A stretch of 64,000 nt of DNA, from contig NZ_FOVO01000009.1 of assembly GCF_900115195.1 (NCBI RefSeq), positions 1 to 64,000 on the forward strand, given 5' to 3'. Made by a program: the position numbers and the translations under genes. The stretch comes from Xenorhabdus japonica. Lineage in GTDB: Bacteria > Pseudomonadota > Gammaproteobacteria > Enterobacterales > Enterobacteriaceae. Numbering within the stretch: position 1 is the first letter of the stretch; each line of letters opens with the position of its first letter. Under the pieces are notes generated by a model, which was given only the letters and a program-made list of their open reading frames with translations, had not been told where the DNA came from and did no database searches. This document shows positions 7,974-26,810 of the stretch, piece by piece.

Positions 7974-8651
7974 ATGCGTCTCTTATTGGTTGAAGATCAT
8001 CCAGAGTTATCACATTGGTTACAGAAGGCATTGAATAATTCTGGGTTTGTGGTTGATCTGGCTGAAGATGGTATTGTGGCAGATCAGCTTTTGCAGACTG
8101 AAAATTATGCTTTATTGGTTTTGGATGTTGCTTTACCCAGATTGGATGGATTGTCTCTGTTATCCCGCTTACGTAAACGTGATCAAAACTTACCCGTATT
8201 GTTATTGACCGCCAAAACAGACGTTGCGGATCGTGTGAGGGGGTTGAATTCTGGTGCTGATGATTACCTGACTAAGCCTTTTGATTTTCAGGAGCTGGAA
8301 GCCCGTATTCGCGCATTATTGCGTCGTGGTACAGCGATACCGCAAGAAACACAGAAATTCGGATCATTGACTTATGAAGGCGAAGGGTATTTTGTATTAA
8401 ATAATGTACCGTTGGTTCTGACGCCCAGAGAATTATCTGTTTTAACAGCATTATTTCATCGCCGAGGGCGTCAGGTCTCTAAACAACAACTGTTTGAGCA
8501 GGTATTTTCTCTATCAGATGAAGCAAATCCACAAAGCATAGAGCTGTATGTTCATCGATTGCGGAAAAAATTACTTAATAGTGATGTAGGGATCAAAACA
8601 TTGCGGGGGTTAGGGTATCGACTGGAGCAGCTGATGCAATTAACTATTTGA
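7974..8651 (+). CDS. tctD: Two-component response regulator TctD
   Basis: TctD is an OmpR/PhoB-type regulator that activates tricarboxylate uptake genes. The 225-residue product has a receiver domain (about 1-115; phosphoacceptor D51 in VLDVALPRLDG, acidic pair E7-D8, conserved K near 101 in LTKPFDFQEL). A winged-helix DNA-binding domain follows (about 130-220; ending KTLRGLGYRLE). AGAGG precedes ATG 7974. It is divergent from tctC across 280 nt, where its operators should lie, though I could not define a binding motif by eye. The last codons fall in a 17-nt tandem repeat that runs into tctE. Confidence 0.92.
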   Translation: MRLLLVEDHPELSHWLQKALNNSGFVVDLAEDGIVADQLLQTENYALLVLDVALPRLDGLSLLSRLRKRDQNLPVLLLTAKTDVADRVRGLNSGADDYLTKPFDFQELEARIRALLRRGTAIPQETQKFGSLTYEGEGYFVLNNVPLVLTPRELSVLTALFHRRGRQVSKQQLFEQVFSLSDEANPQSIELYVHRLRKKLLNSDVGIKTLRGLGYRLEQLMQLTI

Positions 8652-8745
8652 AAATAAGAACTATTTGAAAATAAGATCTATTTTAAAATAAAAACTGTTT
8701 GAAAATACGAAATGTTTGAAAATACAAAACACTTGAAAATACCGA
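8644..8745 (+). repeat. Six-copy 17-nt tandem repeat across the tctD-tctE junction
   Basis: Units start at 8644, 8661, 8678, 8695, 8712 and 8729, with consensus CTATTTGAAAATAAGAA. The first unit contains the tctD stop (8649-8651). The fifth unit supplies the ATG proposed for tctE (8712), created by CTG/CTA to ATG change at the unit start. Unit length is not a multiple of three, so each copy reads in a different frame. No canonical ribosome site is visible in the array. Confidence 0.9.
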
Positions 8746-10151
8746 GATCATTATTCCATCAATTGTTGTTGTTCTTTGGTTTACCGCTACTGTTACTGGG
8801 TTGTGCTTCTGTTTATAGTCAGTATATCAGTGTGAGCAATGCAGCAATGTTGGCTTATGATAGAACGCTGCTTGCATCAGCAAGAACAGTCGCTGAACGT
8901 CTGACTGTCCGGAATCAGAACTTGATCGTTGATGTACCTTATGTTGTTTTGGACAACTTCGAGCGAAATACGAATGAGCGCTTGTACTACCAAGTTATCT
9001 CCCCGGAAGGAGAGACGATTTCTGGTTATGATGACCTTCCTCGAATACCGCAGAATATCCAGCGTTCATCTTTGTATACGGCATTGGCTTACTTTTATGA
9101 TGCGGAATATCAGGGACATCCTATACGTGTAGTTGGGTTGTATCAGCCTATCAATGAGGATGGCATCATGGGGATGGCATTGATAGTGGTGGCTGAAACG
9201 GTAATTTCCCGTCAATATATGGCTCGCCAATTACTGCTCTCTTCGTTGGTTAATCAGGGGACTGTCGTATTACTGACATTGCTCCTTGCTTATATCCTGC
9301 TCAAGCTATTACTTAAACCGCTGCAAAAACTTTCAGGCATTATGGTTCTCCGTTCTGCTAATGATTTAACACCATTGCCAAATATTTTACCGTGGTCTGA
9401 ACTTTCCCCGTTACTTCAATCAATTAACCGATATATCGAAAGGTTGAAATTAATGGTTGGACGCCAAGAGCGGTTCAGTGCGGACGCTTCTCATCAATTG
9501 AGAACACCTTTAGCTGTATTGAAAATGCAGGTTGCTGTAGCACGTGGTGATCAAGAGCAGAGGGATAGCATACTGACGGCGATTGATAAGAGCTTGGATA
9601 ACATGATCTTATTGACTAATCGCTTATTACGGCTTTCACAGCTTAAAGTGCATGAAAAAGAAGCAATACAAAACTATCAGACAGTCAATATCGTGGCGCT
9701 ATTGCAACAAGCCTGCTTTTCCCGTTTACAGCAAGCAGAGAGCAAAAATATTGACTTAGGTTACGAAGGGGAAGATGCCTTATGGATCAGGGGAGATCCC
9801 CTATTGTTAGCCGAAATGTGCGCCAATTTACTGGACAATGCCATCAAATATACCCCGCAAATGGGAGTGGTGACGGGAAGAGTGGGCATAATGCCAGATA
9901 AAAAACAGGCTTGCTTTGAGATCGATGATTCAGGACCGGGTATCGCCCAAGAAGATATCCATCAATCGCTTATGGCGTTTAACCGTTTGGATAATGCAGC
10001 AGGGCTGGAGGGGGCAGGATTAGGGCTGACGATTGTTAAAGAAATCAGCCTCTATCACGATGCCACTCTCCAGCTTTTACCCAGTGAGGTGTTAGGTGGG
10101 TTACTGGTAAGAATTGTATTCAGGCTTCCCGCGAGTAAGTGGGATGCGTAA
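8712..10151 (+). CDS. tctE: Two-component sensor histidine kinase TctE
   Basis: TctE is the inner-membrane kinase partner of TctD. Its 479 residues show TM1 (about 17-36), a periplasmic sensor region (about 40-165), TM2 (about 178-200), a HAMP-like linker, an H-box with H261 (SADASHQLRTPLAV), an N-box (EMCANLLDNAIKYTP), and G-boxes DDSGPGI and GAGLGLTIVKE. The start is uncertain: ATG 8712 lies inside a 17-nt repeat and lacks a clear ribosome site. A TTG at 8733, or coupling to tctD translation, is possible. Its 3' end overlaps the opposite-strand remnant of an EamA transporter. Confidence 0.9.
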   Translation: MFENTKHLKIPRSLFHQLLLFFGLPLLLLGCASVYSQYISVSNAAMLAYDRTLLASARTVAERLTVRNQNLIVDVPYVVLDNFERNTNERLYYQVISPEGETISGYDDLPRIPQNIQRSSLYTALAYFYDAEYQGHPIRVVGLYQPINEDGIMGMALIVVAETVISRQYMARQLLLSSLVNQGTVVLLTLLLAYILLKLLLKPLQKLSGIMVLRSANDLTPLPNILPWSELSPLLQSINRYIERLKLMVGRQERFSADASHQLRTPLAVLKMQVAVARGDQEQRDSILTAIDKSLDNMILLTNRLLRLSQLKVHEKEAIQNYQTVNIVALLQQACFSRLQQAESKNIDLGYEGEDALWIRGDPLLLAEMCANLLDNAIKYTPQMGVVTGRVGIMPDKKQACFEIDDSGPGIAQEDIHQSLMAFNRLDNAAGLEGAGLGLTIVKEISLYHDATLQLLPSEVLGGLLVRIVFRLPASKWDA

Positions 10152-10286
10152 CTGTTGTGCGAGTATCACACCAGCCAGAACAATGCTGCCTCCGATCACG
10201 TGATAACTGTGCATTTCTTCATGGAGAACCAAGATAGCAATGATGGCAGTAAATATGGGAGCCAGATTCATAAAGATAGAAGGCAT
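10101..10286 (-). pseudogene. C-terminal remnant of an EamA/DMT-family transporter
   Basis: About 60 residues read like the last two helices of an EamA-type drug/metabolite permease: SIFMNLAPIFTAIIAILVL, then HVIGGSIVLAGVILAQQ. The frame upstream (10287-10345) loses similarity, and the N-terminal eight helices are absent because pdxB begins there on the other strand. This is a truncated remnant and should not be functional. It overlaps the last codons of tctE. Confidence 0.7.
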
Positions 10287-10353
10287 ATAGGTTTTATGCG
10301 GATAAAGTGGCAGAATAGCAAATTACGCCCATTTAAGCCGTTGGATGAGAAAA

Positions 10354-11481
10354 GTGAAAATTCTGGTTGATGAAAATATGCCTTATGCTGAACAACTCTT
10401 TCAGCAATTGGGCGAAGTACAGGCAATCCCCGGTCGTCCAGTACCCGAGGGAGTTTTGGACGATGCCGATGCCTTTATGGTTAGATCTGTCACTAAAGTC
10501 AATGAATCCTTGTTGCAAGGCAGTTCGGTGAAATTTGTGGGAACTGCCACTGCGGGAATGGATCATGTTGATCAGCAGTGGTTGTCTCAGGCAGGGATTG
10601 GTTTTTCCGCCGCCCCTGGATGTAACGCCATTGCTGTGGTTGAGTATGTATTCTCGGCATTGATGCTATTGGCAGAGCAAGATCAATTTCAGCTTAAAGA
10701 TAAAACTGTCGGTATTGTCGGTGTTGGTAATGTCGGCGGACGCTTGGCTGTCAGACTGGCAGCTTTGGGCGTGAAGACGTTATTGTGCGATCCTCCCCGT
10801 GCAGATCGTGGTGATGAGGGGGAGTTTTGGCCTTTAGAAAAATTAGTGAAAGAAGCGGATATTCTGACTTTTCATACACCTCTTAATCAATCTGGCCCAT
10901 ATCAGACCTATCATTTGGCCGATGCAGAATTACTTTCTGCACTACCGGATAACCGAATTTTAATTAATGCCAGCCGCGGTGAAGTGGTTGACAATCAAGC
11001 ATTACTTTCCGTACTGCAAAATGGGAAAAAATTACGTGTAGTGCTTGATGTTTGGGAACCAGAGCCTAACCTTTCTCTACCCCTGTTGGCTTTAGTTGAT
11101 ATTGGTACTCCTCATATTGCTGGTTATACTCTGGAAGGCAAAGCTCGTGGTACAACTCAGGTTTTTGAGGCTTATTGTGAGTTCTTGGAACAACCTCGCA
11201 AGACGGAGTTAGCAGATCTGTTGCCAACACCTGATTTTAGTCAGGTTACGGTGCAGGGAGAAGTGACACAAAGCGTCCTCAAGCGTTTGATGCATTTAGT
11301 GTATGATGTGCGCCGTGATGATGCACCCTTACGTCAGGTTGCGGCTCAGGAGGGCGCTTTTGATCAGTTACGCAAGCACTATCCAGAACGTCGGGAATGG
11401 TCTTCCCTGACCGTGCATTGTGATTCAGAAGAAAGCGCTCAATTACTGTCCAGAATTGGATTTAATGCAAAAGTAATTTAA
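10354..11481 (+). CDS. pdxB: Erythronate-4-phosphate dehydrogenase PdxB
   Basis: PdxB oxidises 4-phosphoerythronate, the second step of DXP-dependent pyridoxal phosphate synthesis. The product has a D-isomer 2-hydroxyacid dehydrogenase core with the NAD motif [13 protein letters not shown] and the catalytic-region strings [11 protein letters not shown] and [24 protein letters not shown], plus the PdxB-specific C-terminal dimerisation domain. I choose GTG 10354 (reads [14 protein letters not shown]), as in E. coli, giving 375 residues. An ATG at 10345 would add three residues. It heads the conserved block with usg and truA. Confidence 0.95.
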
Positions 11482-19401: not shown

Positions 19402-19992
19402 ATGAAAAAATTGATTGTCGGGTTGACCGGAGCAAGTGGTGCGATTTATGGTGTCAGGTTACTGCAAGTTTTGCAGCCAGTAGAAGGCATTGAAACGCAT
19501 TTGGTGATCAGCCAATCAGCCCGGCAGACTCTGGCATTGGAGACGGACTATACCCTGCGAGATGTACAGGCGTTGGCTGATGTTGTACATGATAATCGTG
19601 ATATTGCTGCATCTATTTCCTCTGGGTCCTTTAAAACATTGGGCATGGTAATTTTGCCTTGTTCGATAAAAACCCTATCAGGTATTGTGCATAGTTACAC
19701 TGATGGCTTAATTACCCGTGCCGCCGATGTTGTTCTGAAAGAGAATCGTAAGTTAGTGCTGGGGGTGAGAGAAACCCCCTTGCACTTGGGGCACTTGAGA
19801 TTAATGACTCAGGCCGCAGAAATCGGGGCGGTGATAATGCCGCCTGTTCCCGCATTTTATCATCGTCCTGAACATATTCAGGATATCATCGACCAGACGG
19901 TTAATCGTGTGTTGGATCAGTTCGATATTGACTTGCCAGAAGATCTATTTAGCCGTTGGCAGGGTGCTAAACCCATTGGGTATAGCACTTAG
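19402..19992 (+). CDS. ubiX: Flavin prenyltransferase UbiX
   Basis: UbiX attaches a dimethylallyl group to FMN to make the prenyl-FMN cofactor used by the UbiD decarboxylase in ubiquinone synthesis. The 196-residue product has the N-terminal flavin motif LTGASGAIYGVRLL, the SSGSFKTLGMVILPCS stretch and the conserved C-terminal PPVPAFYHRPEHIQDIIDQTVNRVLDQF. It closes the conserved block; the next gene is on the opposite strand 28 nt away. Confidence 0.96.
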   Translation: MKKLIVGLTGASGAIYGVRLLQVLQPVEGIETHLVISQSARQTLALETDYTLRDVQALADVVHDNRDIAASISSGSFKTLGMVILPCSIKTLSGIVHSYTDGLITRAADVVLKENRKLVLGVRETPLHLGHLRLMTQAAEIGAVIMPPVPAFYHRPEHIQDIIDQTVNRVLDQFDIDLPEDLFSRWQGAKPIGYST

Positions 19993-20019
19993 CCTTAGCA
20001 ATCTTAGCTGAAAGAACAT

Positions 20020-20688
20020 TTAATCCATTAGCGTAATTTCTATTCTATTAATTCCTTTTCCTTTGTTTTTTCTTGAAAGTTTAACTTTTCCGATTTCTTT
20101 AGTATTGGATACATGGGTGCCGCAACATAACATTTTTATGTCACGGCATTGCCAATACCTTAGCCCATCTTCTGTCATGAAGATGATTTCATTTTCTTGG
20201 GAAATGAAGTTATTAACTTGCTCTTCAAGGGAAGCGAGTAATTCAGCAGTAATACTTTCTGACATTTTATAATCAGTTCTATCTTTCTCTATGTTAACAA
20301 AAGAGCCTTCTACTGATAAAAAACTGCTCATTTGCCTTATAAAATATTCAACAACATGGCTTGCAGAGTGTAAGCGCATAGTTCTGAGCCGATTTTCTTC
20401 ATTAATGGAGGCTATAACCTGTTGTCCTACTTCGAACCCGGAAGTATCGACATAGTGCTTTATCGGAGAAGTAAAAGACAGTTTGTTACTTTCATTTTGT
20501 TCCTCTTCAACACTAACAGAAGTCACCGCTATGCCATTGATCTCGCCCGTATCGTAATTTTGGTTTCCTGATAATGGATAAAATAACGTTTTATCTAAAA
20601 CAATATAATCTTCACCAACCTCGATAACATTAGCATTAAACGTACAGTCATAAGGAGCATCATCAAAAAGTCTTTTTGTCTGCAACAT
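20020..20688 (-). CDS. AlaX-like free-standing alanyl-tRNA editing protein
   Basis: AlaX proteins are stand-alone relatives of the AlaRS editing domain that hydrolyse mischarged aminoacyl-tRNA, typically Ser- or Gly-tRNA(Ala). The 222-residue product has the metal motifs of the family: HxxxH in LHSASH (about 107-111) and CxxxH in CCGTHV (about 188-192), where most members read CGGTH. The N-terminal beta-barrel (about 1-95) fits the AlaX-M type. GGAGG precedes two adjacent ATGs; I prefer the second (20688) on spacing. It is last in a minus-strand run with LysO-like and LysA-like genes, which suggests it protects translation from a noncanonical amino acid (inference). Confidence 0.75.
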   Translation of the reverse strand: MLQTKRLFDDAPYDCTFNANVIEVGEDYIVLDKTLFYPLSGNQNYDTGEINGIAVTSVSVEEEQNESNKLSFTSPIKHYVDTSGFEVGQQVIASINEENRLRTMRLHSASHVVEYFIRQMSSFLSVEGSFVNIEKDRTDYKMSESITAELLASLEEQVNNFISQENEIIFMTEDGLRYWQCRDIKMLCCGTHVSNTKEIGKVKLSRKNKGKGINRIEITLMD

Positions 20689-20715
20689 CATAGCCTCCGA
20701 AAATTAAAGCGATTA

Positions 20716-21651
20716 TTAAAGCGAATAGAAAAAAGGAATAAGAAATGGCACAAGAATAGTGATGATACCGCCAGAGAGTAATGCAACGGGAACATAAGAA
20801 ATACCACAGTGTTTTTCTATAATAGGAAGGGTAACATCCATTGCGGTTGCCCCGGCGACACCAATTGCAATATTGCCATTCCCTATACGCGAAAGTGTCG
20901 GTATCAGAAGTAGTGCAATGACTTCACGAAATAAATCACACAGGAAAGCAACAGAGCCTAGCAATGGATCATTCATTTTGGTGAAGAGAATACCTGACAG
21001 GGTATACCAACCAAAACCTGAACTTACAGCTAAACTTTGAGTAAGAGATAATGGAATAAAAAAAGAAATTAGTGCTGCGCCTATATAAGATGCTGCAATA
21101 GTAAAAAATGTCATTACGATATTGTAACGATTGAAAAATATTTCTTTCAAACTCAATCCCGATAAAGAGAGCTTCATAGCAATAACAAATATCAGAAGAT
21201 ATAACAACAAAGATATGACTATATCATAATCTATCACCGGTGTTATTTTATAGTAACCAAGAAAGAAACCTATTATTACCAGACTTGCAAGTAATATAGG
21301 GTCCTTAATATACCCCATGATATCAAAATCATCTTTTTGATTATTACTGGTTGTTACTTTATTTTTTTCATTACCGGCTGTTTTGATGTGAAAAAACTTT
21401 AAAACAATCACTATAGATAAGGATGAAGCGAAAGCTATACTTATAGCATTAATACCAACATCAGTTAGCTTGCTTATAATTCCAGGTATTGTGCCAATCG
21501 TTATCCCCATTAGAATTAATAGTGAGTAAAGGCACAGGTTAGAGACAAGATCAATTAACCTTATGTTTTTATGCTTAAAAAACTTATTAAAATTGAATCC
21601 GACAACAAATGCTATCAGTATTGGTAACAGATTAGAGATGGCAATATTCAT
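20716..21651 (-). CDS. LysO-family lysine exporter-like membrane protein
   Basis: LysO (YbjE) of E. coli exports lysine and gives resistance to its toxic analogue thialysine. This 311-residue protein has about eight to nine hydrophobic helices. Its C-terminal half carries LysO-like strings: SSGFGWYTLSGILFTK, LLGSVAFLCDLFREVIALLLIP and a GATAMDVTLPIIEKHCG motif. It starts 3 nt after the stop of the LysA-like gene, so coupled expression is likely. The substrate here could be lysine or an analogue made by the neighbouring enzymes. Confidence 0.8.
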   Translation of the reverse strand: MNIAISNLLPILIAFVVGFNFNKFFKHKNIRLIDLVSNLCLYSLLILMGITIGTIPGIISKLTDVGINAISIAFASSLSIVIVLKFFHIKTAGNEKNKVTTSNNQKDDFDIMGYIKDPILLASLVIIGFFLGYYKITPVIDYDIVISLLLYLLIFVIAMKLSLSGLSLKEIFFNRYNIVMTFFTIAASYIGAALISFFIPLSLTQSLAVSSGFGWYTLSGILFTKMNDPLLGSVAFLCDLFREVIALLLIPTLSRIGNGNIAIGVAGATAMDVTLPIIEKHCGISYVPVALLSGGIITILVPFLIPFFYSL

Positions 21652-21654
21652 TAC

Positions 21655-22866
21655 TTAATCCAAAAAACTAGTTGAGAAAAGATCTTCAAAATTTTCAGCT
21701 CTACGAATTTGTATAATAGAGCCACTTTTGTCCTGAATATATTCAGCAGGGCGTCGACGAAGATTGAAGTTTGAACTCATGGAGTAACCATAAGCACCAA
21801 CATCATTAATGCAAATAAGATCTCCTTTTTTTGTTTTTGGTAAAGGCCTTTCACGAGTAAATACATCTCCTGATTGGCACAGGTTTCCTACAACATCGTA
21901 TTTTTCTATATCATATTGTTCTATATGCTTTTCTTTGGCGCTAATGTTTTCAATGTGATGCCATGCATTATAGTAGAAACACCGAGGAAAATGGTTATAC
22001 CCAGTGTTTAATCCCATAAAATTTCGATTTCCGAAACTTTTCAGGGAGCATACTTTAGCAACCAGCTTACCTGCATTTGCAACAAAGAATCTGCCCGGTT
22101 CAATAATGAATTTTGTTTTATCGGATATATTAAAATTTTTTCTAAGCAAATCCAAAGAACTTCTTATTGAACGGAGATCATATTGTTCATAAGATTTATA
22201 ATCATAACCGAAACCACCGCCAAAGTTCAGATGAGAAAGGGAATCAAGTTGTATAGATAACTCCATTAAAAACTCAGCATTCTCAATATACATTTTTGTA
22301 GACATCTCACCTGATCCAGTATGAGAATGCAAGCCGCTAATTTTTATTTTCTTGGCGTTACAAATTTTCTGGGCATGGGTGATTTCTGAAGGTGATATGC
22401 CAAATTTAGACATCTCACCATTAGTAATAACTTTACTTGAATGGCCTGCACCAATCCCGGTATTTACCCGCAAAGTAATCGATTTTTCTAATGAAGATGT
22501 CTCTATATCATCTAGTGCATCAAGAGAACCAATAGACACATTTACATTTTTCTTAAAAGCAAACTCAATTTCATTTTTTGTCAGGCAATCCGCATTGTAA
22601 TGTATTTTATGGGAGGGAATATTACACCTTAATGCAAGTTCTATTTCTTCTATAGAACATGCATCAACACCAATGCCATATGAATAAATCAGTTTTACAA
22701 TGTAAGGATTAGAGTTTGCTTTCATTGCATAAAGAATTTTATAATTGGAAGAGTTGAATTCATTTTTTAATTCATTGATATTTTTGATTATTTTATCTTC
22801 ACTGTATAGATAGAACGGCGTGCCATTATCTCTGGCTATTTTTTCTTCAATGTTTATTTTTTTCAT
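21655..22866 (-). CDS. LysA-like PLP-dependent decarboxylase
   Basis: This is a fold-III PLP enzyme of the diaminopimelate decarboxylase family. The 403-residue product shows the PLP lysine (YAMKANSNP), the LysA-type GHSSKVITNGEMSKFGI region, GLHSHTGSGEM, glycine loop NFGGGFGYD, EPGRFFVANAG, the active-site cysteine region LCQSGDVFTRE and the GAYGYSMSSNFNLR signature. It could decarboxylate meso-DAP or a DAP-like compound such as lanthionine; sequence alone does not decide. It need not be the housekeeping lysA, which usually sits by lysR. ATG 22866 overlaps the preceding gene by 20 nt. The DNA is clearly more AT-rich than flanking housekeeping genes. Confidence 0.82.
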   Translation of the reverse strand: MKKINIEEKIARDNGTPFYLYSEDKIIKNINELKNEFNSSNYKILYAMKANSNPYIVKLIYSYGIGVDACSIEEIELALRCNIPSHKIHYNADCLTKNEIEFAFKKNVNVSIGSLDALDDIETSSLEKSITLRVNTGIGAGHSSKVITNGEMSKFGISPSEITHAQKICNAKKIKISGLHSHTGSGEMSTKMYIENAEFLMELSIQLDSLSHLNFGGGFGYDYKSYEQYDLRSIRSSLDLLRKNFNISDKTKFIIEPGRFFVANAGKLVAKVCSLKSFGNRNFMGLNTGYNHFPRCFYYNAWHHIENISAKEKHIEQYDIEKYDVVGNLCQSGDVFTRERPLPKTKKGDLICINDVGAYGYSMSSNFNLRRRPAEYIQDKSGSIIQIRRAENFEDLFSTSFLD

Positions 22867-23347
22867 TTTTAATATCCTGTTGTTGAAATTTAGATATATA
22901 GCGTTCACCTGAGTCTGGAGAAATACACATTATTTTACACTTGGGGTTTTTATGTATTTCTTTTATAGCAGCGGCCACAACAGCCCCACTAGACAAACCT
23001 ATATCAATAGAATCATGATATCTTGTGAAGCGACAGGCAGAGAATGCTTCTTCGTCAGAAATTGCATATATATCATCAACAGCATCTTTTTTTATTATTC
23101 CTGGAATAAAGTTAGAACCAATGCCTTCGATACTCCAAGGCACGGGATGATATTCTACACCTGAAAAATATTGTTGATATATAGAACCAATGGGGTCGGC
23201 AACAATAAATCGTGCTTGGCTTCCTTTTTCACGAAAGTATTTATGTATTCCCATTTCGGGATATACAGACGTGAGAATGTTAACTACTGGGGTGGTTCCG
23301 ATTAAATTTAATACCCCAATATTATTTTTCTTGCAAGTAATATTCAT
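22847..23347 (-). CDS. Cysteine-synthase-family protein with large internal deletion
   Basis: The 166-residue product begins like an O-acetylserine sulfhydrylase/cystathionine synthase (VLNLIGTTPVVNI). It then jumps at about residue 25 to what normally lies beyond residue 180: GIHKYFREKGSQARFIVADP, SIEGIGSNFIP, DEEAFSACRF, IGLSSGAVVAAA and SPDSGERYISKF. Roughly 150 residues are missing, including the PLP lysine and substrate loop, yet the frame is intact. Catalysis by the usual mechanism is impossible. I start at ATG 23347. It is the first gene of the four-gene minus-strand cluster and may be a decayed biosynthetic enzyme. Confidence 0.7.
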   Translation of the reverse strand: MNITCKKNNIGVLNLIGTTPVVNILTSVYPEMGIHKYFREKGSQARFIVADPIGSIYQQYFSGVEYHPVPWSIEGIGSNFIPGIIKKDAVDDIYAISDEEAFSACRFTRYHDSIDIGLSSGAVVAAAIKEIHKNPKCKIMCISPDSGERYISKFQQQDIKNEKNKH

Positions 23348-23716
23348 ATTAACTCTTTTGGAGAGCAGGTTTCTTTTTACAATGATAATATATAAATAAC
23401 TTTTAGTTATAAAGACATGATTTTTGTTTACTCGCGGTATTGTTATCATTAATTAGTTATAATAACCACGTTTCTTATGTAATGTATGATTTTTAATTGT
23501 GCTTATTTATTTTTTTCTTTCTTTATTCTGTTTTTTTGTCTTTTTTCTGATTTTATAAAATTACTTATAATTCTGATAAAATAGGTAGGGAAGCTTATTT
23601 AATTAGTTTCTTAACGATAAAGTTAAATAATTAAACTAAGTACAAGGCTGAATGGTTTAATAATAAAAATCGTCAGATATATAGTTTTGTTGGTCTATTA
23701 AGAAATAGCAAGAGGA
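23348..23716. other. AT-rich spacer, no gene
   Basis: This stretch separates the start of the deleted synthase gene from the end of yfcH. It is strongly AT-rich and should hold the promoter of the four-gene cluster, but no convincing operator, terminator or reading frame is visible. Confidence 0.5.
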
Positions 23717-24631
23717 TTATAGGACATTATTTTTTGCCTTTATGACATCCTGCAAGGCTTCCTCTAGTTGAAAGTAACGGAAACCAAATCCGGCTTCTTC
23801 CAACCTTTTCGGAATGGCTTGTTGACCACCCAAAACTAATTCCGCTGCTTCCCCCATCATTATTTTTAATACAAATTCAGGAATGCGTATGAAAGCAGGG
23901 CGGTGTAATACACTGGCGAGTGTGGAACTGAACAGTTCATTATGAACAGGGTAAGGAGATGTCATATTAAAGGGGCCATGTAGCTCAGGCGATATCAGTA
24001 GGTAATAGATACCATTAACCATGTCATCAATGTGTATCCACGGCATATATTGCTTGCCATTACTGATTGCTCCGCCTAAACCTAACCGAAACAGTGGCAA
24101 CATTTTTTGCAGTGCACCACCTTTTGGGGCCAGCACAATGCCTGTACGTAACAAGCATACGCGGGTTTTGTCGCTTCTGGCTTGTAACGCAAGCTGCTCC
24201 CAACGTTCACAAAGCTGATGGGCAAACTCATTGTGAGGAGAATCATCTTCGGTAACCACTGATTGCCCCTGATCACCATAATAGCCAACCGCTGAACCGG
24301 AAATAAATACAGATGGAGGAGAGTTACTGGCTTTAATTAGCTTGCTCAACTGTTCAGTGAGTTGCCAGCGGCTTTGACAAAGTATCTCTTTTTGCTTCGG
24401 TGTCCATCGCTTATTGATAATAGGTTCGCCGGCAAGATTGATAACGGCATCAAAGCCGTTTAGATCGCGCAGGTCATTTAGCGTTGTCCAACATTCAACG
24501 CGATCAGAAAACAGAGAATCCACCTTTTGTGGTGAACGACTTAAAATGGTGATGGAGTGGGAGAGCGAGAGCAATTGGTCGGTCAAGCGATGACCAATCA
24601 ATCCTGTTCCTCCCGTAATTAAGATACGCAT
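23717..24631 (-). CDS. yfcH: Epimerase-family protein YfcH
   Basis: YfcH belongs to the TIGR01777/SDR39U1 group of extended short-chain dehydrogenases, of unknown substrate. The 304-residue product has the NAD(P) motif [16 protein letters not shown], the NLAGEP motif, [12 protein letters not shown] around the catalytic tyrosine, and a C-terminal DUF1731-type end ([27 protein letters not shown]). I start at ATG 24631 behind AGGGGG, not at an upstream in-frame start at 24649. Gene order with yfcG and yfcD matches E. coli. Confidence 0.92.
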
Positions 24632-24782
24632 AGCCACCCCCTGCGACAAAAATAGATAAATGCGTATTGACTATAGCAAGGGATGGCTTAAGTGGCAGCG
24701 AAATATGCTGCTATTTGTTACTGGTATCAAGTTTTTTGGTGAAATATTTTTCCATTAACTGAATTTTTTACATATATCGGAG

Positions 24783-26183: not shown

Positions 26184-26810
26184 TTAATGATTGGCAGAAA
26201 AATCTTCCAAAATAAATTTAAAATGATAACTTTCTGCTTTTTCAAACCGCATATAAGGAGGTTTGGTTTCATCATAAGTGATGATATCAAGATCTGTGCC
26301 ATTGTATCTAAAATAGACAGCACCTTGAGTGACAGGGATATTATGCTGATCAAAAATAACAACAGAAGTTACATATTGTTGACCATCTTTGGGAATTAAA
26401 CCAACGACCTCATAGTTTCCACCTGAATAACAATCCACGGGATCAGGGATGGTATAAGTTCTAATATTAGCTCTAAATACCTGATTAACACCTGATTCGT
26501 TAATCAATTTTATCGCCAGTAAGTCACGGTTTTTTGGCGATACAATAAACTTTGATAATCCTCTAATATCATCGATATCGGGTTGGCTTGTATCCCATTC
26601 ACGGTAAATTTGCCCGGGTTGACTATCATTACCATGTCGCCAAGCGAAAACAATAGAATCTGTTCCAATTTCAACAGAAAGAAACTTATCGTTTAATGAT
26701 GTGCCTATTAAATTTACTTCAGTATTATTTTCCGGATATTCATAAGAAGCTCCACTATAATCCTTTTTAGTATAAAATATAGCGCCATTAGCTAATTTAT
26801 CTTTAGACAT
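26184..26810 (-). CDS. Beta/gamma-crystallin-like protein
   Basis: The 208-residue product opens with a Greek-key pattern typical of beta/gamma-crystallins: GAIFYTKKDYSGASYEY at about 9-25, then LNDKFLSVEIG and, in the second half-motif, YREWDTSQPDIDDIRGLSKFIV. Such domains often bind Ca2+ through N/D-N/D-x-x-S/T-S. Here the equivalent strings read NDKFLS and IRGLSK, so binding ability is uncertain. Residues from about 105 form a second part I do not recognise. There is no signal peptide or TM segment. It stands alone, ending at the yfcD terminator, on the same strand as paxC but after the pax terminator. Confidence 0.6.
   Translation of the reverse strand: MSKDKLANGAIFYTKKDYSGASYEYPENNTEVNLIGTSLNDKFLSVEIGTDSIVFAWRHGNDSQPGQIYREWDTSQPDIDDIRGLSKFIVSPKNRDLLAIKLINESGVNQVFRANIRTYTIPDPVDCYSGGNYEVVGLIPKDGQQYVTSVVIFDQHNIPVTQGAVYFRYNGTDLDIITYDETKPPYMRFEKAESYHFKFILEDFSANH

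What the first reader, a model, noticed from the sequence alone, without database searches (positions are those of the whole stretch)
20020..23347. Four-gene cluster that could make, export and guard against an amino-acid antimetabolite
Seen: adjacent or overlapping minus-strand genes for a cysteine-synthase relative, a LysA-family decarboxylase, a LysO-like exporter and an AlaX-like editing protein, in AT-rich DNA between housekeeping blocks. Known: cysteine synthase-family enzymes make beta-substituted alanines; LysA decarboxylates meso-DAP; LysO confers thialysine resistance; AlaX clears mischarged tRNA. Inference: the set would suit a lanthionine-to-thialysine route, or another beta-substituted alanine, with efflux and trans-editing as self-protection. 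I know of no described system with these four parts.
Basis: partly seen in the sequence, partly recalled or inferred. Interest (0 to 1): 0.75.

Follow-up and report, generated by a model that had tools for sequence, protein, structure and literature searches.

The report
Decaying amino-acid antimetabolite gene cluster
Four neighbouring genes in a Xenorhabdus bacterium look like a small kit for making, pumping out and tolerating an unusual lysine-like amino acid, but in this strain the first enzyme has lost half its length, so the kit is probably no longer productive.

Summary
The four minus-strand genes are real: one tightly packed, AT-rich set between ubiX and yfcH. In the window the cysteine-synthase relative is a 166-aa relic; an in-frame 474-bp internal deletion removed its PLP-binding core. 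Two other Xenorhabdus genomes (matching X. yunnanensis and X. anantnagensis) carry the full set with an intact 324-aa enzyme at the same place. Of 30 genus genomes, two more keep relics there, 24 show none, one could not be judged. So the genes travel together, and the set is an old insertion now decaying.

Residue evidence splits the thialysine idea. The exporter keeps both acidic residues that LysO needs for thialysine/lysine export. The decarboxylase has CQSGD where LysA has CESGD; that Glu-to-Gln change cut meso-DAP selectivity in Thermotoga LysA. A normal LysA and a normal LysO lie elsewhere in this genome.

AlaX near an amino-acid exporter recurs in separate AlaX lineages, including coronamic-acid genes and cysteine-synthase/serine-acetyltransferase sets in Xenorhabdus and Salmonella. 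This favours a make, export and de-acylate logic like FthB/FthC. The product is unknown. Best reading: relic of a lysine-like or beta-substituted-alanine antimetabolite operon.

The parts
20020..20691 (-). AlaX-like trans-editing (aminoacyl-tRNA deacylase) protein, 223 aa; motifs HSASH and CCGTH present (zinc-site role recalled), motif FYPLSGNQ in place of the usual ending GGQ
20716..21651 (-). LysO-family exporter paralogue, 311 aa; E243 and D272 align with E. coli LysO E233 and D261
   Evidence: second, ordinary LysO elsewhere in the genome
21655..22866 (-). LysA-like fold-III PLP decarboxylase, 403 aa; Q331 in CQSGD (ordinary LysA: E), R259 and R295 kept; N287 in the window only, where the 7 other rows aligned have D
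22847..23347 (-). Relic of a cysteine synthase / cystathionine beta-synthase-like PALP enzyme, 166 aa; in-frame 474-bp internal deletion removes the PLP-binding core
23348..23716 (.). AT-rich intergenic stretch upstream of the set, presumed promoter region; promoter-like matches in 19900-23800 (16) no more than in shuffles (mean 18.5)
19402..19992 (+). ubiX: one edge of the insertion site
23717..24649 (-). yfcH-like gene: other edge of the insertion site; next to ubiX without the set in 24 of 30 genus genomes

Best explanation
The set is the remains of a four-gene operon for a non-proteinogenic amino acid that acts as an antimetabolite. In the intact versions the PALP enzyme would join serine, O-acetylserine or cysteine with a nucleophile to give a beta-substituted alanine. 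The LysA-like enzyme would remove one carboxyl group from it or from a partner compound. The LysO-like protein would export the cationic, lysine-like product. The AlaX-like protein would hydrolyse tRNA mischarged with it. The operon was inserted between ubiX and yfcH in one part of the genus and is being lost. In the window strain the first enzyme is dead, so the exporter and the editing protein would at most give residual tolerance to a neighbour's product. Shown: gene content, linkage, the deletion, site occupancy, the residue changes. Inferred: co-transcription, enzyme activities, that there is one product, that it is lysine-like, and toxicity.
For: G028 keeps a short piece of PALP joined to the end of alaX, so its ancestor probably carried the whole set; G018 keeps a broken alaX. 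Pairwise dN/dS, window against L034: lysO 0.03, lysA 0.17, alaX 0.17, flanking genes 0.02-0.16, PALP remainder 0.12 (recount): purifying selection over the time since these lines split, strongest on lysO. LysA and LysO are paralogues of ordinary copies elsewhere in the genome. LysO keeps E233/D261, both required for thialysine resistance and lysine export in E. coli (PMC8498466, abstract and passages). An exporter lies within 1.5 kb of 10 of 29 free-standing AlaX loci and of 0 of 15 AlaS loci; 8 of 29 when each locus's own exporter is left out of the queries. These loci fall in separate AlaX lineages and include a coronamic-acid locus; two cysteine-synthase/serine-acetyltransferase sets have an exporter further off. 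FthB (aminoacyl-tRNA deacylase) plus FthC (exporter) protect 4-fluorothreonine producers in this way (PMC7408626 and PMC7162832, passages).
Against: No product is known and no activity was tested. The full set was found in 3 of 30 genus genomes, one of them broken; the AlaX and LysA searches outside the genus found no second case. The exporter count is partly circular: 8 of its 9 exporter queries came from loci in the counted set, three of the ten positives are this cluster, two pairs of positives are the same gene in sister species, and the 29 loci are not all: 13 further free-standing AlaX places had no locus fetched and 9 of 27 plasmid records were looked at. 19 of 29 AlaX loci show no exporter within 1.5 kb. 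The closest LysO relatives on plasmids (47-57% by stretch) sit beside MBL-hydrolase genes in 6 of 6 records looked at, not beside amino-acid enzymes. None of the four genes is a regulator or a serine acetyltransferase.
Confidence: 0.5

Rival explanations
1. One reading: PALP makes lanthionine, the LysA-like enzyme decarboxylates it to thialysine, LysO exports thialysine, AlaX clears thialysyl-tRNA.
For: The intact PALP scores best against cystathionine beta-synthase and cysteine synthase A (275.8 and 273.8 bits, both below cut-off). LysO keeps the residues needed for thialysine export, and E. coli LysO is proposed to export thialysine by preference (PMC8498466). LysA distal-carboxylate arginines are kept.
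Against: Q331 replaces the Glu that reads the distal amino group, which lanthionine and DAP both have. In T. maritima LysA, E315Q lowered meso-DAP activity from 675 to 82 mU/mg and raised 2-aminopimelate activity from 14.7 to 41 (PMC8277567). LysA acts on a D-centre, while PALP enzymes normally give L,L products (recalled). AlaX proteins are known for Ser/Gly-tRNA(Ala).
Confidence: 0.13
2. The genes have no common task: a horizontally acquired, AT-rich block of separate amino-acid genes that is being lost.
For: Full set only in 3 of 30 genus genomes, one of them broken; relics in 2 more. Low GC.
Against: Tight gene spacing, and a 20-bp PALP-lysA overlap also in the two intact relatives. Purifying selection on all four between the window and its relatives. 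The deletion is in frame and keeps the overlap.
Confidence: 0.2
3. Lysine provisioning: a second LysA and a second LysO overproduce and excrete lysine, for example for the nematode partner.
For: LysA score above the family cut-off; LysO family member with the functional acidic pair.
Against: The CQSGD change predicts a poor DAP decarboxylase. PALP and AlaX have no place in it. None of the four genes supplies DAP.
Confidence: 0.07
4. A precursor set for a siderophore-, polyamine- or peptide-type metabolite, in the manner of SbnA/SbnH or BtrK, with LysO and AlaX as bystanders.
For: SbnH, FigC, BtrK and MccE show that this decarboxylase fold is used in specialised metabolism (PMC7857480 passages). 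The PALP also matches the SbnA family model (207.6 bits).
Against: None of the four genes is SbnB-like or a synthetase (an SbnB-like gene elsewhere was not searched for). The SbnA score is far below its cut-off (349.95) and below the CBS and CysK scores. The decarboxylase scores much better against LysA (328.6) than against DokD (138.2), NspC (78.6) or FslC (51.2) models.
Confidence: 0.1

Closest known systems
FthB/FthC of the 4-fluorothreonine producers Streptomyces cattleya and Streptomyces sp. MA37
   Same: A trans-acting aminoacyl-tRNA deacylase and an exporter in the gene cluster of a toxic amino acid; logic of self-protection is the same (PMC7408626, PMC7162832; passages read).
   Different: FthB is related to ProXp-ST1, not AlaX (PMC11295145 passage); the product is a fluorinated threonine; no LysA- or LysO-family protein is named in the passages read.
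Coronamic-acid locus on the Pseudomonas tremae plasmid NZ_CP066271 (cmaA, chlorinating enzyme, cmaC, an alpha/beta hydrolase, then AlaX and LysE)
   Same: AlaX followed directly by an amino-acid exporter, downstream of amino-acid biosynthesis genes.
   Different: Different enzymes, different exporter family, a separate AlaX branch.
Cysteine-synthase / acetyltransferase / exporter / AlaX sets: Xenorhabdus sp. TH1 plasmid, Xenorhabdus G002 and G013, Salmonella enterica serovar India plasmid
   Same: PALP enzyme, amino-acid exporter and AlaX within about 9 kb.
   Different: They add a serine O-acetyltransferase (in G013 a hexapeptide transferase, not typed further; in TH1 also a further valyl-tRNA synthetase), use EamA/DMT or AzlC in place of LysO, and no LysA-like gene was seen in the stretches looked at.
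LysO (YbjE) of Escherichia coli
   Same: Same Pfam family; E233 and D261 conserved.
   Different: Only 31-34% identical; the genome has another LysO whose motifs around these residues are closer to E. coli's (by eye).
LysA, diaminopimelate decarboxylase
   Same: Fold, PLP lysine, both distal-carboxylate arginines, score above family cut-off.
   Different: CQSGD in place of CESGD; 31-34% identity to ordinary LysA. At strict thresholds no relative but itself in 369 Gammaproteobacteria (1e-75) and one at 34% in 398 Pseudomonadota genomes (1e-58).

Membership tests
LysA (diaminopimelate decarboxylase, TIGR01048) | Score above the curated cut-off | tested here: met
   328.6 bits against 297.9
LysA (diaminopimelate decarboxylase, TIGR01048) | Glu in the CESGD loop that reads the distal amino group | tested here: not met
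   Gln in 3 of 3 cluster proteins; Glu in 5 of 5 ordinary LysA rows and in the 5 PDB alignments printed; role of Glu315 from PMC8277567 passages
LysA (diaminopimelate decarboxylase, TIGR01048) | Arginines for the distal carboxylate (R249, R285 of T. maritima) | tested here: met
   R259 and R295 of the window protein align with them
LysA (diaminopimelate decarboxylase, TIGR01048) | Converts meso-DAP to lysine | not testable with these tools
   needs purified enzyme
LysO exporter | Lys_export domain | tested here: met
   189.9 bits against 23.8
LysO exporter | Acidic pair E233/D261 required for thialysine resistance and lysine export | tested here: met
   E243 and D272; 2 of 2 plasmid relatives aligned lack the Glu
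AlaX trans-editing proteins | HxxxH and CxxxH zinc-site motifs | tested here: met
   HSASH, CCGTH; zinc role recalled
AlaX trans-editing proteins | Glycine-rich motif ending GGQ | tested here: not met
   FYPLSGNQ in the window, X. yunnanensis and X. stockiae rows; no other of the 25 rows showed GNQ, three rows gave no motif match. That the motif defines the family is recalled.
AlaX trans-editing proteins (AlaXM, NF040865) | Score above the curated cut-off | tested here: not met
   129.3 bits against 300
Cysteine synthase / CBS-type PALP enzyme | PLP lysine and PLP-binding motifs in the window copy | tested here: not met
   deleted in the window, present in L034 and L035
Editing deacylase plus exporter self-protection pair (FthB/FthC kind) | Deacylase and exporter genes adjacent to enzyme genes for an amino acid | tested here: met
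   that the enzymes make one amino acid is inferred
Editing deacylase plus exporter self-protection pair (FthB/FthC kind) | Deacylase acts on tRNA charged with the cluster's product; exporter carries it | not testable with these tools
   product unknown

The most novel reading that the evidence does not exclude
AlaX proteins have repeatedly been recruited, from several AlaX lineages, together with amino-acid exporters (LysO, LysE, EamA, AzlC) as a mobile self-immunity module that marks undescribed amino-acid antimetabolite pathways in Enterobacterales. The window set is a lysine-analogue type in which a beta-substituted alanine is trimmed by a neofunctionalised LysA and the editing protein protects against a product other than serine or glycine.
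Probability: 0.27. Interest if true: 0.75.

Novelty: new variant of a known kind. Interest (0 to 1): 0.55.

Why it matters
If right, AlaX beside an exporter is a searchable marker for short, easily missed gene sets that make amino-acid antimetabolites, a class with few known bacterial pathways (from general knowledge, not from a call). It would also give a natural setting for LysO, whose proposed natural substrate is thialysine, and a natural LysA with altered distal-site specificity. For this strain it is a clear case of a set caught after losing its first enzyme while its exporter has stayed highly conserved.

Tried and rejected
Looked for the set outside the genus. AlaX in 394 Enterobacterales genomes at E 1e-18: 3 of 394 matched, the own genome and two others at 33% (the draw did not return the other Xenorhabdus carriers). 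The genome-contig scan used two short peptide patterns, so its four loci are not proof of absence. LysA profile in 369 Gammaproteobacteria at 1e-75: 1 of 369, the own genome. LysA protein in 398 Pseudomonadota at 1e-58: 2 of 398, the own genome and one at 34%. Other phyla were not searched; PALP and LysO were not searched genome-wide outside the own genome.

The nearest plasmid LysO relatives were followed in six of 64 records: MBL-hydrolase neighbours in 6 of 6, isochorismatase-family annotated in 4 of 6, Tn3 transposase in 5 of 6; no amino-acid enzymes, so LysO neighbours gave no support. Promoter-like matches were not above shuffles.

Literature: ten searches, several aimed at AlaX with gene clusters, thialysine or oxalysine biosynthesis and Xenorhabdus, listed no description of this set. 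The library is open-access PMC only, and several searches held more papers (up to 345) than the 10-20 listed.

Slips. In one search the row named own2 is an ArtP-like protein picked by mistake for the second LysO; its identities were ignored. In one search the PALP figures (0.19, 0.27) counted overlapping tblastn pieces; one search recounts 165 codons: 0.12 and 0.30. In one search the HxxxH pattern hit a wrong place in some rows; only the window-type rows are used for it. A structure prediction was considered and not run.
Full report
Observation. The window 20020-23347, minus strand, holds four packed ORFs: a 166-aa PALP protein, a 403-aa LysA-like decarboxylase overlapping it by 20 bp, a 311-aa LysO-family exporter 3 bp further on, and a 223-aa AlaX-like protein 24 bp after that. 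The four genes have GC 0.33-0.35 and GC3 0.23-0.30 against 0.43-0.47 and 0.36-0.46 in six flanking genes.

The synthase is broken here. The 166-aa protein matches PALP only in its C-terminal part. Orthologues of 324 aa in G029 (L034) and G001 (L035) align with it over residues 1-31 and from 190 on. The missing 158 residues, an in-frame loss, contain the PLP lysine motif and the glycine-rich PLP-binding motifs (roles recalled), so the window copy should be inactive. The overlap with lysA is kept. I saw no obvious direct repeat at the deletion ends.

Distribution. Among 30 genus genomes, the cluster-type AlaX was found in G000 (window), G029 (96%), G001 (94%), G018 (83%, interrupted), G025 (61%, elsewhere in the genome, without the other three) and G028 (C-terminal relic, in two contigs). 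The LysA-like gene passes 1e-60 only in G000, G029 and G001. The site between ubiX and yfcH was checked from the ubiX side in all 30: three carry the set (one of them, the window, with the broken synthase), two carry relics, 24 have yfcH beside ubiX within about 560 bp and no relic found at blastn E 1e-3, and one (G016) ends at a contig edge and cannot be judged. In G028 a short piece of PALP (73 bases at 85%) is joined to the last part of alaX, as one large internal deletion would leave. A genome-contig scan named the carriers X. yunnanensis XENO-10, X. anantnagensis XENO-2 and X. stockiae (AlaX only), plus a 27% Lachnospiraceae match.

Selection. Pairwise dN/dS, window against L034 and L035: lysO 0.03 and 0.07; lysA 0.17 and 0.15; alaX 0.17 and 0.23; flanking genes 0.02-0.16; PALP remainder, recounted on 165 codons, 0.12 and 0.30. 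On the window branch alone the counts are small: PALP remainder 5 synonymous, 3 non-synonymous codons; lysO 11 and 2; lysA 13 and 7; alaX 7 and 7. These numbers cannot tell whether constraint has ended since the deletion. One lysA change in the window, D287N, hits a column that is Asp in the seven other rows of alignment A5.

The decarboxylase. Besides the window gene, two places in the own genome match the LysA model: an ordinary LysA (405 bits, CESGD) and a weaker match (95 bits, below cut-off) in a 654-aa frame that was not followed. The cluster protein aligns over its length with LysA structures. R259 and R295 match T. maritima R249 and R285, which bind the distal carboxylate; Q331 matches E315, which reads the distal amino group (PMC8277567, passages). 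In that enzyme E315Q took meso-DAP activity from 675 to 82 mU/mg and 2-aminopimelate activity from 14.7 to 41. So Gln relaxes but does not abolish DAP activity. The natural substrate may lack, or carry a changed, distal amino group. Close relatives were not found: at strict thresholds 1 of 369 Gammaproteobacteria (itself) and 2 of 398 Pseudomonadota (itself and one at 34%); on plasmids the 30 records listed of 143 reach 31-33%.

The exporter. The own genome has an ordinary LysO. The cluster protein keeps E243 and D272, which align with E. coli E233 and D261. In E. coli these residues are needed for thialysine resistance and lysine export, and the authors suggest that thialysine is the preferred natural substrate (PMC8498466, abstract and passages). 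Two plasmid relatives (48% and 47% in that alignment) have Gly for the Glu, and the six plasmid loci looked at lie in another setting.

The editing protein. The HxxxH and CxxxH motifs are present. The motif FYPLSGNQ is shared by the window, X. yunnanensis and X. stockiae rows and by no other of 25 rows in the tree, three of which gave no motif match. Known AlaX proteins hydrolyse Ser- and Gly-tRNA(Ala), and short forms lack tRNA specificity (PMC11295145 passage). What the change does is unknown.

A recurring pattern. Neighbours of AlaX homologues include: cysteine synthase, serine O-acetyltransferase, DMT exporter, a serine-dehydratase-type protein and an extra valyl-tRNA synthetase on a Xenorhabdus sp. 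TH1 plasmid; a similar set without the synthetase in G002, with transposase-like ORFs between it and AlaX; part of a PALP at a contig start, a hexapeptide transferase, EamA and AlaX in a row in G013; AzlC, methyltransferase, serine O-acetyltransferase, cysteine synthase and AlaX on a Salmonella enterica serovar India plasmid; coronamic-acid genes, AlaX and LysE in Pseudomonas tremae; LysE and AlaX in Priestia; a PhyH-type protein, AlaX and EamA in G014, with the same arrangement by ORF in G009; AlaX and LysE in G007 and G012; PALP beside AlaX in G219.

How strong is the pattern. A tblastn count gave an exporter within 1.5 kb for 10 of 29 free-standing AlaX loci, 0 of 15 AlaS loci, and 3 of 30 ubiX loci, all three being this cluster. 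With each locus's own exporter left out of the queries it is 8 of 29; P. tremae and G014 then drop out. PALP lies that close in 2 of 29 (Salmonella, G219). The remaining 17 have neither at that distance: Vibrio, three Legionella, Haloterrigena, Lachnospiraceae, G008, G011, G017, G025, G217, G311 (two), G340 and G376, and also TH1 and G002, whose exporters lie further off. Three of the ten positives are this cluster and two pairs are one gene in sister species. Left out of the 29: two relics, one broken copy (G316), 13 free-standing places without a fetched locus, and 18 of 27 plasmid records; some stretches are cut by contig ends. So the count is a lead rather than a test. The tree separates the window type, a clade of five rows of which four sit near PALP genes and one (G008) stands alone, the coronamic-acid row, Priestia, and the G007/G014/G017 rows. 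It has long branches and open forks, but the association has probably arisen more than once.

Reading. A deacylase and an exporter beside amino-acid enzymes is what FthB and FthC do for 4-fluorothreonine producers. I take the set as a lost or failing antimetabolite operon, most likely for a cationic, lysine-like or small beta-substituted amino acid. Thialysine through lanthionine remains possible but is weakened by Q331.

Noticed in passing
L069 (Xenorhabdus sp. TH1 plasmid NZ_CP147736), 34-9059: Cysteine synthase, serine O-acetyltransferase, DMT exporter and a serine-dehydratase-type protein near AlaX and an extra valyl-tRNA synthetase; the spare synthetase could be self-protection against a valine-like product.
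   Followed up: partly
L110 (Salmonella enterica serovar India plasmid NZ_CP022016), 827-4699: AzlC transporter, methyltransferase, serine O-acetyltransferase, cysteine synthase and divergent AlaX beside an integrase-like gene: a second PALP-AlaX set.
   Followed up: partly
L071 (Pseudomonas tremae plasmid NZ_CP066271), 2000-8266: AlaX and LysE downstream of coronamic-acid genes.
   Followed up: partly
L117 (G219), 421-2436: AlaX divergent from a short PALP gene and an ORF that resembles, by eye, the transferase of the G013 set, in another Enterobacterales genus with a 2.5-Mb genome.
   Followed up: partly
L037 (G025, X. stockiae), 8601-10419: The 61% AlaX relative lies beside a protein with an agglutinin C-terminal domain, between genes that look like speA and agmatinase, without the rest of the set.
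   Followed up: partly
L072-L077: LysO relatives on Enterobacterales plasmids lie beside MBL-hydrolase genes in 6 of 6 records (Tn3 transposase near 5 of 6); two of two aligned lack the E233-equivalent.
   Followed up: partly
window 21655-22866 and L034, L035: The lysA-like gene varies by in-frame copies of short repeats (DDI in L035, IEQYD in L034 and the window).
   Followed up: no
window 26184-26810: 208-aa ORF in another AT-rich stretch that is kept beside the same block in L034 and L035; a crystallin-like look is an impression, not tested.
   Followed up: no
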